Virus record (IMG/VR): IMGVR_UViG_3300050120_000012
Location: 1-64,000 of that record
Strand: one strand, 5' to 3'
Source: a virus
DNA length: 64,000 nucleotides
Shown here: piece after piece, positions 5,462 to 61,226 of the stretch
How positions within the stretch are numbered: the stretch's first letter is position 1
How the letters are laid out: each line of letters starts with the position of its first letter
Made by a program: the position numbers and the translations under genes
The notes under the pieces: generated by a model
The model's database searches: none
Seen by the model: only the letters and a program-made list of their open reading frames with translations
What the model was told of the DNA's origin: nothing

Positions 5462-6988
5462 TCAAGACCGCTTGTCCATCTCCATTCCGGTGACGTTGAT
5501 GAGGGTGTTCTTCGCGCGGGTGACGGCGACGTATTGCAGATTAACCTCTTGCTCATAGGCCCATCCCGACGTGACGAACGGCGACGGCATGATCTCATTG
5601 AGGCCGAGAACATAGACGGTATGCCATTCGAGACCCTTGGAACGGTGAACCGAACAGAGGGTAACTTTGTCGTCCGACGACACTTCATCGCCGAACATGG
5701 ACATGACTTGCGTCTGGAGTTCAGCCATCCCGGCGTCGGCGTTCGTCTTCACAACGTGATCGATGATGAACTGCATCGTATCGACGAGATCGTGAACGGC
5801 GTCCACACGAACCATGTTCTCGGCCAAGGTAGCCTTCTCGACTTCCTTAGAGCGATAGCCCTCCAGCTTGTCCTTCAGCGCCGTCAGCCTCTTCACGCCG
5901 GGCCAGCGTTGCGCCAGCGCGAGGATACCGTGACCGACCTTGCGGCCTTCGATCATCGCGGGAATGCCTTCGCGGATCAGTGCAAAGCATGTCTTCACAA
6001 GGAACTTGTTATAGCGCGACAGGATAGCTTGGCCGGGTTTAACGGTGGAGATCAAATCTTTATAGGCGACTTCGCCGTAGAAACCATCGGGAGCCTTGTC
6101 GGCGGACTCGATATGCGAGACGAACTTCTGCGCCTGCTCGACAACCGCCTTCGGGCAACGGTAGGACACGGACAGATAGAGCTTCTTCGCCATGAATTGC
6201 TTGGCGATCAACTCCAGAGAATCGTTGTCCGCGCCAGTGAAGCCGAAGATGGCTTGGTGGGGATCGCCAACCGCGACCAAGCGTCCACCCCGGCCAAGCA
6301 TCGCAGCGGCGAGCGCACGACGGGTAGGGTTCGTATCTTGGGCTTCGTCAACGATCACCCACTCATGCTTCAGCATAGGGAGCTTCAGCAAGAGCGGGAG
6401 ATAGACCATATCGTCGAAGTCAACGCAGGAGTGATCGGCGTTGGACTTCTTCAGCACGGCGCGAGCGAAGGGGATGATCTGATCGGTGCGCAGACCTTCC
6501 GGGAAGTTCTCCAGAAGGTCGAAGTGGTCGATCATCGCCTGCCACACAGCGTTGTCGTTCGCATCGCCAGCGGCGATCAGAGCGCCGATGCCGCGTTGCT
6601 TCGCCATGGACACGATCCCGGCGATGTAGGGCGCAACCGGCTCCAGATCGGCGCGGATGGTCTTCATGCCGTCCACGATGCGTTGGACTTTCTTGTCCGT
6701 CACGTCGAGCTTTTCAGCCTTCCATGAGAACATAAGTTGGCGGAAACCGGCGGAGTGGAAGGTGGAAGCGTACACGCCCTTGCGACCGGCGACACGTTGC
6801 TTCAGTTCAGCGGCCATCTTGGAATTGTATGCGCCGAGGAAAACCTTGCCGGACATGAAGTCCAGACCGTCGATCAGAGTGGAGGTTTTGCCAGCGCCCG
6901 CGACGGCTTCGACAACGATGTTTCCCGTACCGACTTTGACTTCTTCGAAGTAGGCGATCTGCGAAGTGGAGTGTGCGTAGGAGGTCAT
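5462..6988 (-). CDS. UvrD/PcrA-like superfamily 1A DNA helicase
   Basis: 508 residues, ATG 6986-6988, a short family member. Visible motifs in order: Walker A AGAGKTST (30-37), Walker B VDEAQD (213-218), motif III GDPHQAIFGF (241-250), motif IV SYRCP (275-279), motif V VHRSKGLEW (447-455) and motif VI VAVTRAK (487-493). These define an ATP-dependent 3'-5' single-strand DNA translocase or helicase, probably used in replication or recombination. A strong promoter (7021-7050) lies directly upstream, so it can be expressed apart from the preceding genes. The family assignment is secure; the precise phage role is inferred. Confidence 0.93.
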   Translation of the reverse strand: MTSYAHSTSQIAYFEEVKVGTGNIVVEAVAGAGKTSTLIDGLDFMSGKVFLGAYNSKMAAELKQRVAGRKGVYASTFHSAGFRQLMFSWKAEKLDVTDKKVQRIVDGMKTIRADLEPVAPYIAGIVSMAKQRGIGALIAAGDANDNAVWQAMIDHFDLLENFPEGLRTDQIIPFARAVLKKSNADHSCVDFDDMVYLPLLLKLPMLKHEWVIVDEAQDTNPTRRALAAAMLGRGGRLVAVGDPHQAIFGFTGADNDSLELIAKQFMAKKLYLSVSYRCPKAVVEQAQKFVSHIESADKAPDGFYGEVAYKDLISTVKPGQAILSRYNKFLVKTCFALIREGIPAMIEGRKVGHGILALAQRWPGVKRLTALKDKLEGYRSKEVEKATLAENMVRVDAVHDLVDTMQFIIDHVVKTNADAGMAELQTQVMSMFGDEVSSDDKVTLCSVHRSKGLEWHTVYVLGLNEIMPSPFVTSGWAYEQEVNLQYVAVTRAKNTLINVTGMEMDKRS

Positions 6989-7020
6989 TCCAAGGGTCCT
7001 ATATCGGATGAAGATGGCCC

Positions 7021-7050
7021 CTTATAGAATGTCCCAATCGTCCCTGTCAA
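7021..7050 (-). promoter_or_regulatory. Sigma70-type leftward promoter of the helicase gene
   Basis: On the minus strand TTGACA (7045-7050), an 18-base spacer and TATAAG (7021-7026), 33 bases before the helicase ATG. The -35 box overlaps the stop codon of the upstream gene. This is the best consensus promoter in the window. Confidence 0.75.
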
Positions 7051-8147
7051 TCGTCTTTCTTCGGTGGTTTCACTTCATAGACCTGTGTAACCATGCCAAC
7101 CTCAGGATCACCCCGACTATGGGATTTGATTTTTATAGCCCATGAGTATCGATGAAGTCGTTCAATGTATAACCATTCCCAATTTTCATTGATGCGACGA
7201 TCTGAAGTCCTGTAGTGCGCGCGAACCATATGCCAGCGGTATTTGACTTTGGTATCGAAGGCCATTTTCAGATGTTTTTCAATGTCCTTCATGCGAACGC
7301 GCTTACCGGGAATGTCGATAGATACTACGCTATTCGTTGAATAGTGTTTGATTCGTCCATCACCACGATATGAACCTTTAGGAGTATAAGGAACATATCG
7401 CACCGGCACATGACCTAGAACGGCTAGAGCGACAATCAGGAAGCGCAGATCGCCAGCTTGTTCCTTCAGAGACCGTACCATGGCGCTATAGGCAAATTGA
7501 TCGGGATTTTCCTTTTGCAGGATGGCATGAAGAGATGCCGGTTCAGGGATTATCCCAAACATTCCCCGAATATCTTTTATCTGTTTAGGATCAGAAGCAC
7601 CCCACGGAAGAGACTGAAGTTCATCGTCCTCCATAAGGACTTCCATCGTGTTCTTTATCTTGTCACCATATATACCACCGACTTTGCTTATGTCCCATTT
7701 ATCCCCATCAGTTCTGAACATAAAACTTGCAGGAAAGGCAACGAACAGATCATTGCGAGGGAGATCACCAAATGTCGTAACAGAATAGAAACCGCCGTCC
7801 ATCTTCTCTTCAATAAGAAACCCAAGCTTGATTGGAGTTCCATCGTCATTGTCAGAATGTGATCCAGTAGCCACAGCTTGGAGACGCTTGGCCGATTCTA
7901 TTCGAGCAGAGAAGTTGAACTCAACCCATGTCACAGGAAAAGGGGGATCACCTAAACGAAGATAGCTCAACAGACGTTTGCTCAACGTACTGGAGCATGA
8001 CACTTGCATAATGTAATCCACAATATCATCGTCCAAGGTGAACGGAATTGCCTTCTTCATTTGCTCGCGATAGAGCTTCATTCCCGCTTTGCCATGAGAC
8101 TCAACTATAGCTCGATTGTAGAGATCAAGATTGCGGGTGTTCTTCAT
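7047..8147 (-). CDS. Conserved phage protein of unknown function; possible +1 tail extension
   Basis: 366 residues from ATG 8145-8147, overlapping the upstream stop as ATGA. The C-terminal third (WHMVRAHYRTS...WLYIERLHRYSWAIKIKSHSRGDPEVGMVTQVYEV, given here in parts) resembles a widespread family of uncharacterised phage proteins with His-x-Val-Arg and His-x-Arg-Gly-Asp motifs; that link is from memory. The frame ends KKDD-stop at 7047. In the +1 frame the sequence continues as KTIDRDDWDIL-stop to 7022, nearly identical to the tail of the neighbouring 8144-8371 protein, so the true or ancestral end may be there. It lies in a slightly AT-richer stretch than its neighbours. Confidence 0.75.
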   Translation of the reverse strand: MKNTRNLDLYNRAIVESHGKAGMKLYREQMKKAIPFTLDDDIVDYIMQVSCSSTLSKRLLSYLRLGDPPFPVTWVEFNFSARIESAKRLQAVATGSHSDNDDGTPIKLGFLIEEKMDGGFYSVTTFGDLPRNDLFVAFPASFMFRTDGDKWDISKVGGIYGDKIKNTMEVLMEDDELQSLPWGASDPKQIKDIRGMFGIIPEPASLHAILQKENPDQFAYSAMVRSLKEQAGDLRFLIVALAVLGHVPVRYVPYTPKGSYRGDGRIKHYSTNSVVSIDIPGKRVRMKDIEKHLKMAFDTKVKYRWHMVRAHYRTSDRRINENWEWLYIERLHRYSWAIKIKSHSRGDPEVGMVTQVYEVKPPKKDD

Positions 8148-8371
8148 AGTATGTCCCAATCATCATCATCTATGGGTTTATCGCCGGGGCGTCCAAGTTC
8201 ACACCATAAAAGGTAGGCGGCTTTGCGATCCCATGACGCATCACTGATCTTGCCGCCGTTGGCGAACACGGCTTCATCACCGACGTTGTTCAGAGACGTA
8301 CCGAAGTGGCGTTCGAAGTAAATCTCGAATGGCGTCACAGCGCCGTCCTTCGGTCGATCCTTTACAGCCAT
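8144..8371 (-). CDS. Small acidic-tailed protein
   Basis: 75 residues. The body (TPFEIYFERHFGTSLNNVGDE) looks soluble and helical; the end is KPIDDDDWDIL, a clear copy of the acidic-aromatic tail found on ten proteins here. It overlaps the next gene as ATGA and the previous one by 10 bases, so it is firmly in the operon. No enzymatic motif is visible. A small adaptor that presents the tail to a partner is one possibility. Confidence 0.7.
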   Translation of the reverse strand: MAVKDRPKDGAVTPFEIYFERHFGTSLNNVGDEAVFANGGKISDASWDRKAAYLLWCELGRPGDKPIDDDDWDIL

Positions 8372-17999: not shown

Positions 18000-18261
18000 C
18001 GGTGATCGGCTCCACTCGCGGCTCATCGGTTTGGGGCCAGCACGTTGTATGGGGAATCTCCGAAATGTCCATCTTGGTTTTCCAGTGTGAACCACAGACT
18101 CGGCACATGAGGTAGGACATTGCAGACCATCGTGGCTGATAACCATTGAACGCCGATCTGGATTCATGGTCGATCAGTACCACCCATTGCCTCGGGCGCT
18201 GATTTGATCCAGCCGGTACGATCTGTGGCCGGTTTCGTTCCGTGCAGCGACAGGCGCTCAT
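17992..18261 (-). CDS. Small zinc-knuckle-like protein
   Basis: 89 residues from ATG 18259-18261 at an ATGA junction. Cysteines at the N-terminus (SACRCTERN) and in the middle (YLMCRVCGSHW) plus HTTCW could form a zinc site. Basic overall. Function unknown. Confidence 0.62.
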   Translation of the reverse strand: MSACRCTERNRPQIVPAGSNQRPRQWVVLIDHESRSAFNGYQPRWSAMSYLMCRVCGSHWKTKMDISEIPHTTCWPQTDEPRVEPITDV

Positions 18262-18899
18262 ATGATGTCCCAATCCAAAGAAGGATCGTCGAAGTCCGGT
18301 TCGGGTTCTTCAGTCTTACGGATCGGATCGCCGAACCCGTCTGTCTCGCCGGTCCACATAGACTCGACGGTCTTACGGAAGAGTTCGATGCGGTCTTTGT
18401 CAGGCTGGCGTAGTTCCGCTCGCGCTTGGATTGATCCGGGGGGTGGTAAAGAGGGGGTGCGCTCTAACCACTCCACGACAGTTTCAGTGTCGAGCGCGAG
18501 ATCGACGATGCCGGTACGCGGACGTATGGTGAGGAAGTCTAAATCCTTCAGTGGCTTCATCCACCATCGCTCAGTCTTAGCGGGCATGGTCAAAAGACCG
18601 ACGATGATCTCTTCGCCTAAACCGTCCAAGAAACGATCTGGACTGAACTCGCCGGTCGATTTGATGAGTGAATGACGCAAGGCTGCACCGACGACAGTCA
18701 GGCTATACATGCCATCTAGCTCGCGCCGCATGAGGCCATTCTTGACGCATAATTGTAGGGCTCGGGAGCGATTGACTGTGACAGCCGACTCCGATTTGCG
18801 CCCGCCTGACTTGGGCCGGTACATGGGGGATGAACCCATCTCATCCACAAGCTCAGCAAAGCCGGGATAGATTCTATGGGGCAGAGATCGGGGTTCCAT
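18258..18899 (-). CDS. First gene of the left block: winged-helix-like protein with acidic tail
   Basis: 213 residues from ATG 18897-18899. Residues about 40-75 (NRSRALQLCVKNGLMRRELD, GMYSLTVVGAALRHSL) follow a winged-helix plan; the C-terminus is acidic with EPEPDFDD and ends PSLDWDII, one of the shared tails. It is the promoter-proximal gene next to a palindromic operator, the usual place for an early regulator. It resembles the 13242-13967 protein in layout. Regulator role is inferred from position and fold. Confidence 0.68.
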   Translation of the reverse strand: MEPRSLPHRIYPGFAELVDEMGSSPMYRPKSGGRKSESAVTVNRSRALQLCVKNGLMRRELDGMYSLTVVGAALRHSLIKSTGEFSPDRFLDGLGEEIIVGLLTMPAKTERWWMKPLKDLDFLTIRPRTGIVDLALDTETVVEWLERTPSLPPPGSIQARAELRQPDKDRIELFRKTVESMWTGETDGFGDPIRKTEEPEPDFDDPSLDWDII

Positions 18900-58550: not shown

Positions 58551-59192
58551 CTAGAACTGAACGTCGTCATCTCCGAAGGCGTCACCGCCCGCGTCGTCGC
58601 CGAAGCTGATCTCGTCTTCGCCCAAGTCGGTGAAGTCGTTCTCCGCGTCCGGCCCTTGATTGCCGAACTTCTCGCCGTCACCGATGAAGATGAGGTTGTG
58701 CAGATTGACCGCAACGCCCTTGGACTTATTGTCGAAGCTCCAGAACGACACGGAAGCTCGGGCGTAGCAGCCCGCGTAGAACTTGCTCCAGTCGATCTTG
58801 GTCTTCGCGCCGCCGATCATCTGGATCATGCCGGGCGGGGTTTTGTTCCCCATCCGAATGAACGTGACGCCTGCGCCGTAGCCGTCTTTGTCCGGCTTCT
58901 CCATGCCGTCGCGGAACGGCATCTTGTACGCCGGAAGAATCTTCCGGTCGGCCCCGAACGCTTTGTCGCCGAACTTCTCCCGGAGGGAGGCCACGGCGGC
59001 TTGACGCATCTTCTTCCACCGCTCCGCATCTTGCGGTGTGAAAGACGTAGCCGTGAAGAGGCCGGTCACGCCATACTTGGGATCGCTGGCGGAACCTTCC
59101 ATCTTGGACGGCTTATCGAGGTTGGGATAGGACGTTCGGAAGATCGGAGTGGTGATCGTGACCTGAACGGCTTTCTCGGCTGCATCAGCCAT
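58551..59192 (-). CDS. ssb: Single-stranded DNA-binding protein, DUF2815 (Enc34-like)
   Basis: 213 residues from ATG 59190-59192 with AAAGGAC upstream; the longer frame is discarded. The order FRTSYPNLDKPSKME, KFGDKAFGADRKILPAYKMP, then KFYAGCYARASVSFWSFDNK and GVAVNLHNLIFIGDGEKFG fits DUF2815, an OB-fold SSB family in phages. The C-terminal 30 residues are acidic (DFTDLGEDEISFGDDAGGDA) and end GDDDVQF, like the SSB docking tip. It coats single strands at the fork. Next to DUF2800 and helicase genes, as in other phages. Confidence 0.87.
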   Translation of the reverse strand: MADAAEKAVQVTITTPIFRTSYPNLDKPSKMEGSASDPKYGVTGLFTATSFTPQDAERWKKMRQAAVASLREKFGDKAFGADRKILPAYKMPFRDGMEKPDKDGYGAGVTFIRMGNKTPPGMIQMIGGAKTKIDWSKFYAGCYARASVSFWSFDNKSKGVAVNLHNLIFIGDGEKFGNQGPDAENDFTDLGEDEISFGDDAGGDAFGDDDVQF

Positions 59193-59262
59193 GAGGGTAG
59201 TCCTTTCTAACGTGTTAGCGTTTGAGCGTTTTAATGGCCCCATGAGGGAGCCGGGATCGACG

Positions 59263-59613
59263 CTACCGGACTCTGCGCACGTTGGCAATAGCGCGTTCGA
59301 TATTGGTGAGATTCGGAATGCGCTTGCGTTGGAAGACTTCACGCCAGAACGGAGGGACTTTTGTGTGGTCTCCAGAAGAACGGGCATAGATCAGTTGGGT
59401 AGCGGTCTGGCGCACGATTACTGCATCCATTCCAGCGATGTCGCAGATGTCCCTATACTCGTCTTGGGCTTCTATGAACCAAGCGCGAGCTTCATTTACA
59501 CAACGGCGATGTTCTTCTTTGTCGTGCGGTAAGTTGGTGAAGCCGAGGGCATCGCAGAGCGCCCGGTATATGACTTGCTGACAAACCGGACGCCACTCTT
59601 CAACGATGTCCAT
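59263..59613 (-). CDS. Hypothetical protein
   Basis: 116 residues from ATG 59611-59613; the context TTAACCATGG, without a clear ribosome site, is shared with the small terminase start. An alternative ATG is at 59658, overlapping the upstream gene by 16 bases. Helical, Cys-containing (WRPVCQQVIYRALCDALGFT; VNEARAWFIEAQDEYRDICD). No family recognised. Confidence 0.6.
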   Translation of the reverse strand: MDIVEEWRPVCQQVIYRALCDALGFTNLPHDKEEHRRCVNEARAWFIEAQDEYRDICDIAGMDAVIVRQTATQLIYARSSGDHTKVPPFWREVFQRKRIPNLTNIERAIANVRRVR

Positions 59614-59642: not shown

Positions 59643-61226
59643 TTAGAGAATATCCCATTCGTCGGCGTCGGGTGCGGCGAGTAGCAGCGGTTCCCCGTCG
59701 TCCACGACACTGAAGTCCGCGTCGATAATGCCAAGCTCTTCGTCGCCCAAGTCACTGAACGGATTGATCTCGATTGCAGGACGCGCGTCGGTGATCGGAA
59801 CTAGGGTGAGCTTACCTTCCGGGTGGAAGGACAGTTGGGCCACAAGGTCTTTACCGATCTCGGGTATCTTCTCCAGTTGAGCCGGTGTCTTGCACTTCGG
59901 CTCTTTGAAGATGTCCTTATCTGGAATACCCATGTTGCGCAGACGCTTGATCGTGTCCGCTTCATTCTTCAGCTTTCGATTAGACCGCTTGCGGACGATC
60001 TTCTGGCCTTCGATGGCATAGCCGTTTTCAGCCTCATGCTGAGCGTAGGCTTGAACGTCGCGGATCATGGCGTCCAGCACAGGTGCGAGACGGAGGATGG
60101 TGAGCATCCGCTGGCGATCTCCGATGACGCTGGCGACCATCTTCTTCGATAGGTTCTCACCGGCTTCTGATAGCACTTGCTTGACACCTTTCTGAATGAC
60201 GAACTCTTCGTCGCCTAAGTCTGTGAAGTCCTGCAAAGCAAGCGACTGAGCTTGGTCGAATAAGGCGGGACAAGGCTTCGCCTTACCATTGCAGAAGAAG
60301 CATTGGACTTCGCCGGGGACTAGCGGCGCATCCGGGTCTTCGGTCGCTATTGCAGCTTCAATGAGAGTCTTCGTGAAATCCATGACTTCATCGATAGTGT
60401 AGTCCCACGTTCTAATAGGACCGTCTCTGTGAGCCGCGCGAGGTTGAACGATAACGGTACGGACGATCTTCGGTAAGTCCCCTCGATCTCTACATATTTC
60501 GAGGATAGCCCCAAGAGCATAATACAGAAGTTGAGGATTGAATTTAGCTTCGACGACTTTACCTCTTCCGTGCTTGTAATCAAGAACGATAAGGATTTCG
60601 CCTCTGACGAAGAAGCAATAGTCATTTGTTCCGAACATGCCGGGATAGAGGCGACTGAGATCAAATCCCTTTTCAAGGAAAATATGAACGTCGTCTTTGT
60701 CATAAGTAGCATACAGTTCCTCCGTAATGCGGGCGATCTCTAGTGTGTATTTCGCCACGGCATCGGCCATGTCTTCATCGATCTCAAAGACGATCACGTC
60801 GTCTTCTTCCTCATCCGGGTAGTCGTCGGTGAGGTTGCCTTTGATGTCGATAAACTGTCCGATGAACCAATGCGGATGAACGTCGGACGACAGTGCAAGC
60901 TCCGCTAGATGGTGAGCACACGTTCCCTCTTGAGCAAACCGGCTGGATCGGTTCGGCATCCCCTTGGACATGCGGACGGAGCCGGGACACTTCATCCATC
61001 GATCTGAGGACGACGCACCTAATACGGCGTGGACCTTGCCATCCTCTGACGTGTGGCCTTCCTTCTTCCCATGGGCTTGAGGCCCTAGCACGGATAGCAG
61101 CGTCGGAACCCGATTTTCCAGCCCCATCTCCGCAACGATGTCGTCGAAGTTTATATGGGGATTGGCGATCAGAGTTGTGACCTTGGCGATCACCTTCTCT
61201 TTGTTCTTCGCTGCGAAGTCGATCAT
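59643..61226 (-). CDS. DUF2800 (Cas4/RecB-like) nuclease
   Basis: 527 residues, ATGA junction with the helicase gene. HAVLGASSSDRWMKCPGSVR near 65-85 is the DUF2800 opening signature; LIVLDYKHGRGKVVEAKFNP near 210-230 has the Asp-x-Lys of the PD-(D/E)XK core, and QCFFCNGKAKPCPALFDQ near 305 the Fe-S/zinc-type cysteines. Family members work with DUF2815 SSBs in phage DNA processing. Repeats of 'FTDLGDEEF' and 'FSDLGDEEL' precede the end PDADEWDIL, one of the shared tails. Confidence 0.85.
   Translation of the reverse strand: MIDFAAKNKEKVIAKVTTLIANPHINFDDIVAEMGLENRVPTLLSVLGPQAHGKKEGHTSEDGKVHAVLGASSSDRWMKCPGSVRMSKGMPNRSSRFAQEGTCAHHLAELALSSDVHPHWFIGQFIDIKGNLTDDYPDEEEDDVIVFEIDEDMADAVAKYTLEIARITEELYATYDKDDVHIFLEKGFDLSRLYPGMFGTNDYCFFVRGEILIVLDYKHGRGKVVEAKFNPQLLYYALGAILEICRDRGDLPKIVRTVIVQPRAAHRDGPIRTWDYTIDEVMDFTKTLIEAAIATEDPDAPLVPGEVQCFFCNGKAKPCPALFDQAQSLALQDFTDLGDEEFVIQKGVKQVLSEAGENLSKKMVASVIGDRQRMLTILRLAPVLDAMIRDVQAYAQHEAENGYAIEGQKIVRKRSNRKLKNEADTIKRLRNMGIPDKDIFKEPKCKTPAQLEKIPEIGKDLVAQLSFHPEGKLTLVPITDARPAIEINPFSDLGDEELGIIDADFSVVDDGEPLLLAAPDADEWDIL

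What the first reader, a model, noticed from the sequence alone, without database searches (positions are those of the whole stretch)
7022..7060. A hidden eleventh tail in the +1 frame just after the 7047-8147 gene
Seen directly: the gene ends ...PKKDD-stop, but skipping one base at the AAGAAAG run gives KTIDRDDWDIL-stop (7022-7057), almost the same as KPIDDDDWDIL at the end of the adjacent 8144-8371 protein. Chance is very unlikely for seven matching residues. Either a programmed +1 frameshift, a recent single-base deletion, or an assembly error. The same bases also form the TTGACA/TATAAG promoter of the helicase gene, so the tail code may have been recycled as a promoter.
Basis: seen in the sequence. 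Interest (0 to 1): 0.78.

Follow-up and report, generated by a model that had tools for sequence, protein, structure and literature searches.

The report
Leftover tail code beside inserted gene
Just behind a foreign-looking gene, this bacterial virus carries a second, out-of-frame copy of the short protein ending that several of its DNA-handling proteins share; it is best read as an untranslated scar of a gene insertion that now overlaps the next gene's likely promoter, rather than as a hidden frameshifted protein end.

Summary
On the minus strand, 7057-7022 reads KTIDRDDWDIL-stop in the +1 frame of the 366-aa gene (8147-7047), which ends KPPKKDD-TGA. It matches the neighbouring protein's ending KPIDDDDWDIL at 9 of 11 residues; about 1e-5 copies of DDWDIL-stop are expected by chance in the 71.8-kb record. 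The ending belongs to a genuine tail system: 5 in-frame copies here and 33 of 33 loosely matching tails on long ORFs in four related phage genomes.

The frameshift reading is not supported. No homologue of the 366-aa protein has a tail (16 of 17 loci plus two Caulobacter phages). There is no recognised slip site or stimulatory RNA fold.

The 366-aa gene is the lowest-GC stretch of the record (0.451 against 0.554; 0 of 708 windows as low). Its low-GC block begins and ends at the two tail copies. In 7 of 7 relatives the slot holds a different, 147-161-aa gene. I read the hidden tail as a scar left when a foreign gene landed between two tail copies, now overlapping a TTGACA-18-TATAAG promoter-like site before the helicase. 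A recently broken tail or a sequence error cannot be excluded.

The parts
7022..7057 (-). Hidden tail code, KTIDRDDWDIL-stop, +1 relative to the 366-aa gene; best read as an untranslated scar
7047..8147 (-). 366-aa gene of unknown function, no tail in its own frame; foreign base composition (GC 0.451, GC3 0.433)
   Evidence: no Pfam or PHROGs match
8144..8371 (-). Gene X, 75 aa, with in-frame tail DDDDWDIL; homologue of the X genes of Brevundimonas-type phages
8144..8179 (-). In-frame tail code of X, KPIDDDDWDIL-stop; nearest relative of the hidden tail
7021..7050 (-). Promoter-like site TTGACA-18-TATAAG inside the hidden tail, upstream of the helicase gene
   Evidence: function inferred from position
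5462..6988 (-). UvrD-like helicase gene downstream of the hidden tail
7001..8200 (.). Low-GC block whose two borders fall at the two tail copies
18258..18899 (-). Other in-frame tailed protein, ends LDWDII
59643..61226 (-). Other in-frame tailed protein (DUF2800, exonuclease-like), ends DEWDIL

Best explanation
The hidden tail is an untranslated scar. The phage, a relative of the 86-87-kb Brevundimonas phages, tags several DNA-handling proteins with a short acidic-aromatic C-terminal tip, DDxWDIL here (shown). The slot between the tagged protein X and the helicase is occupied by a foreign-looking, low-GC, untagged 366-aa gene where relatives have another gene (shown by composition and synteny; direction of change inferred). 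The join left one tail copy in frame on X and a second one directly behind the newcomer, out of frame; that second copy is either a duplicate of X's tail or the last codons of the displaced resident gene (inferred, not resolved). It is no longer translated, and part of it now forms the -35 and -10 elements of the helicase promoter (inferred). Because the spacer between those elements still encodes the tip perfectly, the event should be recent.
For: Tail code beyond chance and closest to X's tail. The 366-aa gene is the lowest-GC 1.1-kb stretch of the record, 0 of 708 windows as low; the low-GC block starts and ends at the two tail copies; of 10 homologues measured in other phages none is more than 0.04 below its own flanks. 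Tail copies stand in direct repeat on either side of the gene. No homologue carries a tail. In 7 of 7 relatives the X-helicase slot holds another gene, ending DPDDLF or DPDELF, which has no match in this record; in G001 and G002 the 366-type gene lies behind the helicase instead, so it changes place. A promoter-like site sits at the same position in all 7 relatives.
Against: No close relative with the site before the insertion was found, so the order of events is inferred. The tip is intact in the unconstrained promoter spacer, which fits a recent event but would also fit translation or a sequence error. DNA identity of the two tail copies is only 25 of 36, which implies some age if they arose by duplication at the insertion. 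The promoter-like site is not more frequent than chance (1 found, 0.5 expected).
Confidence: 0.6

Rival explanations
1. The 366-aa gene had an in-frame tail of its own, taken from X's tail, and lost it recently through a small frame-changing mutation near its end.
For: The tail starts within the last codons of the gene, is intact, and is nearest to X's tail; differences from X's tail are mostly synonymous (5 of 7 differing codons), so the frame was once translated.
Against: No homologue has a tail; the zero-frame stop lies where the family normally ends; the gene's foreign composition suggests that it came from phages without this tag.
Confidence: 0.2
2. Sequencing or assembly error: the tail is in frame in the real phage.
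For: The record is a metagenomic virus contig; no reads could be seen; the tip is intact.
Against: Relatives' ORFs aligned over 43,687 bases of the record show no neighbouring hits in different frames, so indel errors are rare; the local base runs are short. The test is blind to breaks near gene ends.
Confidence: 0.09
3. Programmed +1 ribosomal frameshifting adds the tail to a fraction of the protein, as Listeria phage PSA does for its tail protein at a stop codon.
For: The stop is TGA followed by C, recalled as a weak termination context; an AAA-G stretch two codons before the stop allows tRNA-Lys re-pairing (recalled); a +1 shift just before a stop codon is known in phages (PMC5009743 passages).
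Against: The codon before the stop, GAT, cannot re-pair at +1; the codon after AAA, GAC, is common in the record; RNA fold z-score -0.78; no homologue conserves the arrangement; 33 of 33 tails in four relatives stand at the ends of long ORFs, none hidden.
Confidence: 0.06
4. Chance, or a DNA element (the promoter) that merely happens to spell the tail.
For: The promoter-like site accounts for the TTGACA and TATAAG bases.
Against: D-D-W-D-I is spelt mainly by the promoter spacer, which such a promoter does not constrain; chance expectation is about 1e-5 per record.
Confidence: 0.03

Closest known systems
Gene-acquisition scars and morons in phage genomes (recalled concept)
   Same: Foreign-composition gene between conserved neighbours, short repeats at its borders, a fragment of coding sequence left behind
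   Different: The repeat is the code of a shared C-terminal peptide tag, and part of the leftover overlaps a promoter
+1 programmed frameshifting in Listeria phage PSA (PMC5009743, passages seen)
   Same: A +1 shift just before a stop would add a short C-terminal extension
   Different: No CCC_UGA-like site, no stimulatory fold, no conservation here
SSB and T7 gp2.5-type acidic C-terminal tips
   Same: Acidic run ending in hydrophobic or aromatic residues on DNA-metabolism proteins; this phage's own gp2.5/Enc34-like SSB ends DDDVQF
   Different: Here several non-SSB proteins carry the tip, and it is WDIL rather than a terminal phenylalanine

Membership tests
Programmed +1 ribosomal frameshift | Shift site with good +1 re-pairing and a slow (stop or rare) A-site codon | tested here: not met
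   GAT before TGA does not re-pair at +1; AAA could, but its A-site codon GAC is common (sequence; codon counts; pairing rules recalled)
Programmed +1 ribosomal frameshift | Stimulatory RNA structure or Shine-Dalgarno-like element | tested here: not met
   fold z-score -0.78, 45 of 200 shuffles fold at least as well; no strong Shine-Dalgarno-like run seen upstream. Pseudoknots not tested
Programmed +1 ribosomal frameshift | Overlapping frame conserved in homologues | tested here: not met
   0 of 16 loci read and 0 of 2 Caulobacter phages; all are distant (about 22-33% identity)
Programmed +1 ribosomal frameshift | Frameshift product detected | not testable with these tools
   needs a reporter or mass spectrometry
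Shared acidic-aromatic C-terminal tail of this phage group | DDxWDIL-type tip directly before a stop codon | tested here: met
   DDWDIL-TAA at 7022
Shared acidic-aromatic C-terminal tail of this phage group | Tip at the end of a long open frame | tested here: not met
   only 15 codons are open and there is no usual start
Gene-insertion or replacement scar | Foreign base composition of the intervening gene | tested here: met
   GC 0.451 against 0.554 mean, 0 of 708 windows as low
Gene-insertion or replacement scar | Repeats at both borders | tested here: met
   7024-7042 and 8146-8164, 89% alike; 25 of 36 over the whole tail
Gene-insertion or replacement scar | Slot lacks this gene in relatives | tested here: met
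   7 of 7 relatives hold another gene in the slot
Gene-insertion or replacement scar | Pre-insertion site in a close relative | tested here: inconclusive
   no close relative found; Pan1 was not syntenic

The most novel reading that the evidence does not exclude
Tail-coding DNA, repeated at the 3' ends of several genes, acts as a joint for gene exchange: incoming genes are swapped in between two tail repeats, so that newcomers land next to, and can be fused in frame to, the phage's peptide tag. The hidden tail would be such an exchange caught out of frame.
Probability: 0.14. Interest if true: 0.65.

Novelty: new member of a known kind. Interest (0 to 1): 0.4.

Why it matters
The scar itself is a modest piece of phage genome archaeology. 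It suggests that the tag behaves on the DNA as a separable module: it can stay behind when the gene before it changes, and its bases can be reused as a promoter. It also draws attention to lineage-specific C-terminal tags on several different proteins (WDIL here; FDIL, FAIL and WDIL in Brevundimonas phages; DLLG in two other virus contigs), whose receptor is unknown.

Tried and rejected
Close homologues by single-protein scans of viral contigs gave nothing. A DNA pattern scan for DDWDIL-stop gave 3 unrelated contigs; in two the motif ends an unrelated ORF, in the third it does not. Pseudanabaena phage Pan1 has a 75-aa gene just upstream of its helicase that looked like an empty site, but its sequence is unrelated to X. 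Structure prediction of the 366-aa protein was weak (mean pLDDT 58) and gave no convincing PDB match (best E 0.42). A genome-contig scan gave one weak MAG hit, not followed. Stop readthrough was considered: the zero frame beyond TGA does not give the tail (sequence). The promoter scan does not list the site because it demands T as the last base. Paper searches on shared phage C-terminal tails (gp2.5 tails) showed no description of this tag in their listings; the library holds open-licence papers only. Papers seen: PMC9437464 and PMC5009743 (passages only); all others as search listings.

Full report
What is there. The window is part of a 71,812-base virus record. On the minus strand, gene X (8371-8144, 75 aa) ends KPIDDDDWDIL and its stop overlaps the start of the next gene (8147-7047, 366 aa), which ends KPPKKDD-TGA. 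Immediately behind, in the +1 frame, 7057-7022 reads KTIDRDDWDIL-stop; 33 bases later the UvrD-like helicase gene begins at 6988. The tail frame is open for 15 codons only and has no usual start codon.

Not chance. Under a first-order Markov model of the record, DDWDIL-stop is expected 1.1e-5 times on both strands, and [DE][DE]WDI[LI]-stop 5.9e-5 times. In 60 simulated genomes the strict form never occurred; a much looser form occurs 0.5 times per genome. The hidden copy agrees with X's tail at 9 of 11 residues plus the stop and at 25 of 36 bases; the other four in-frame tails of the record reach 16-22 of 36; 1 of 200,000 random 36-mers reaches 25. Of the seven differing codons five are synonymous, and seven of ten base differences fall at third positions. 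So this frame was probably translated under selection somewhere in its past.

The tail is a real shared feature. The record has five in-frame WDI[LI] endings: 8144, 18258 and 59643 in the window, 67269 and 68758 beyond it. The relatives are five Brevundimonas phages and virus records G001 and G002. Three of the five Brevundimonas genomes and G001 were scanned whole: 9, 9, 9 and 6 loosely matching endings (FDIL, WDIL, FAIL, FDL, FDI), all on ORFs of at least 72 codons, none hidden. Orthologous tips include the primase-like protein (DEWDII here, DEWDIL in all four) and the DUF2800 exonuclease-like protein (DEWDIL here, AFDIL in all four).

Homologues of the 366-aa protein. tblastn finds 10 Caulobacter phage records at about 27% identity, and a scan with an alignment finds 17 viral-contig loci, some of them duplicates. 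I read the gene ends in 16 of the 17 (L011 left out as a near copy of L010) and in two Caulobacter phages. All stop shortly after the conserved V-Y-x-V region, except L016, which runs on for about 30 residues. None has a tail in its own frame, and none shows one in the other frames over about 30 codons downstream. The zero-frame stop of the window gene is where this family normally stops. Function is unknown: no Pfam or PHROGs match, weak structural model, no PDB match.

Foreign gene. The 366-aa gene has GC 0.451 and GC3 0.433; 1,100-base windows of the record average 0.554 (sd 0.033) and none of 708 is as low. In 60-base bins the drop starts at the X tail and ends at the hidden tail. Of ten homologues measured in other phages, none is more than 0.04 below its own flanks in GC, so low GC is not a family trait. 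The gene lies between two tail copies in direct repeat.

Synteny. In 7 of 7 relatives (BabaJaga, Delta, Poludnitsa, Leszy, Fanboy, G001, G002) the order is an X homologue ending DDPFAIL (AEYDIL in G002), then a 147-161-aa gene ending DPDDLF or DPDELF, then the helicase (the lengths of 154 and 161 for G002 and G001 are counted from upstream of the likely start). That resident gene has no convincing tblastn match in this record. In G001 and G002 the 366-type gene lies directly behind the helicase; in BabaJaga that place is empty. So the 366-type gene changes place, and here it occupies the slot of a gene that itself ended in an acidic tip.

Promoter. In all 7 relatives TTGACT-17-TAGAAG (TAGAGA in G001) begins a few bases behind the resident gene's stop. 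Here TTGACA-18-TATAAG lies at the same position and overlaps the hidden tail. It is the only site with 11 or more of 12 matches in the record, but 0.5 are expected by chance, so position and synteny, not score, make the case. The tip is spelt mostly by the 18-base spacer, which such a promoter does not constrain; its perfect state therefore argues for a recent event, or for translation.

Frameshifting. The known phage case, PSA, shifts at CCC_UGA (PMC5009743, passages seen). Here the codon before TGA is GAT, which cannot re-pair at +1 (pairing rules recalled); AAA two codons earlier could, but its A-site codon GAC is common. RNA folding of the junction is unremarkable (z -0.78). I give programmed frameshifting 6%.

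Error. Aligning relatives' ORFs of at least 100 codons to the record (43,687 bases covered) gave no pair of neighbouring hits in different frames. The test is blind to breaks near gene ends, so an error remains possible at 9%.

Conclusion. The hidden tail is real code, most likely without a reader. The best account is a scar of gene replacement or insertion between two tail copies, later overlapping a promoter. I could not tell whether the second copy is a duplicate of X's tail (nearest in sequence) or the last codons of the displaced resident gene (same place, acidic D-x-D-D ending). A tail that belonged to this gene and was lost recently is the main rival (20%).

Noticed in passing
L055 (3098-5261) and L054 (2983-3953): In two other virus contigs the X homologue and its neighbours share a different tip, DLLG-stop: 6 forward and 1 reverse pattern matches in the 43.7-kb record (0 in the reversed-pattern control) and 3 in the 68.6-kb record (1 in the control). 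The shared tag appears lineage-specific.
   Followed up: partly
L027 16530-16608 and the same place in six other relatives: Behind the -10-like element lies a conserved imperfect inverted repeat (TCAACAT..TTGTTGTCAAC), possibly an operator for the helicase promoter; not seen at the same place in the window.
   Followed up: no
window 8144, 18258; record 67269, 68758: Most in-frame tails end in ATGA, so that the tail's stop can overlap a start codon; at 8144 it is the start of the 366-aa gene.
   Followed up: no
window 58551-59387: The gp2.5/Enc34-like SSB ends DDDVQF, while the relative BabaJaga's SSB ends DEFQL: the SSB tip differs from the WDIL tag.
   Followed up: no
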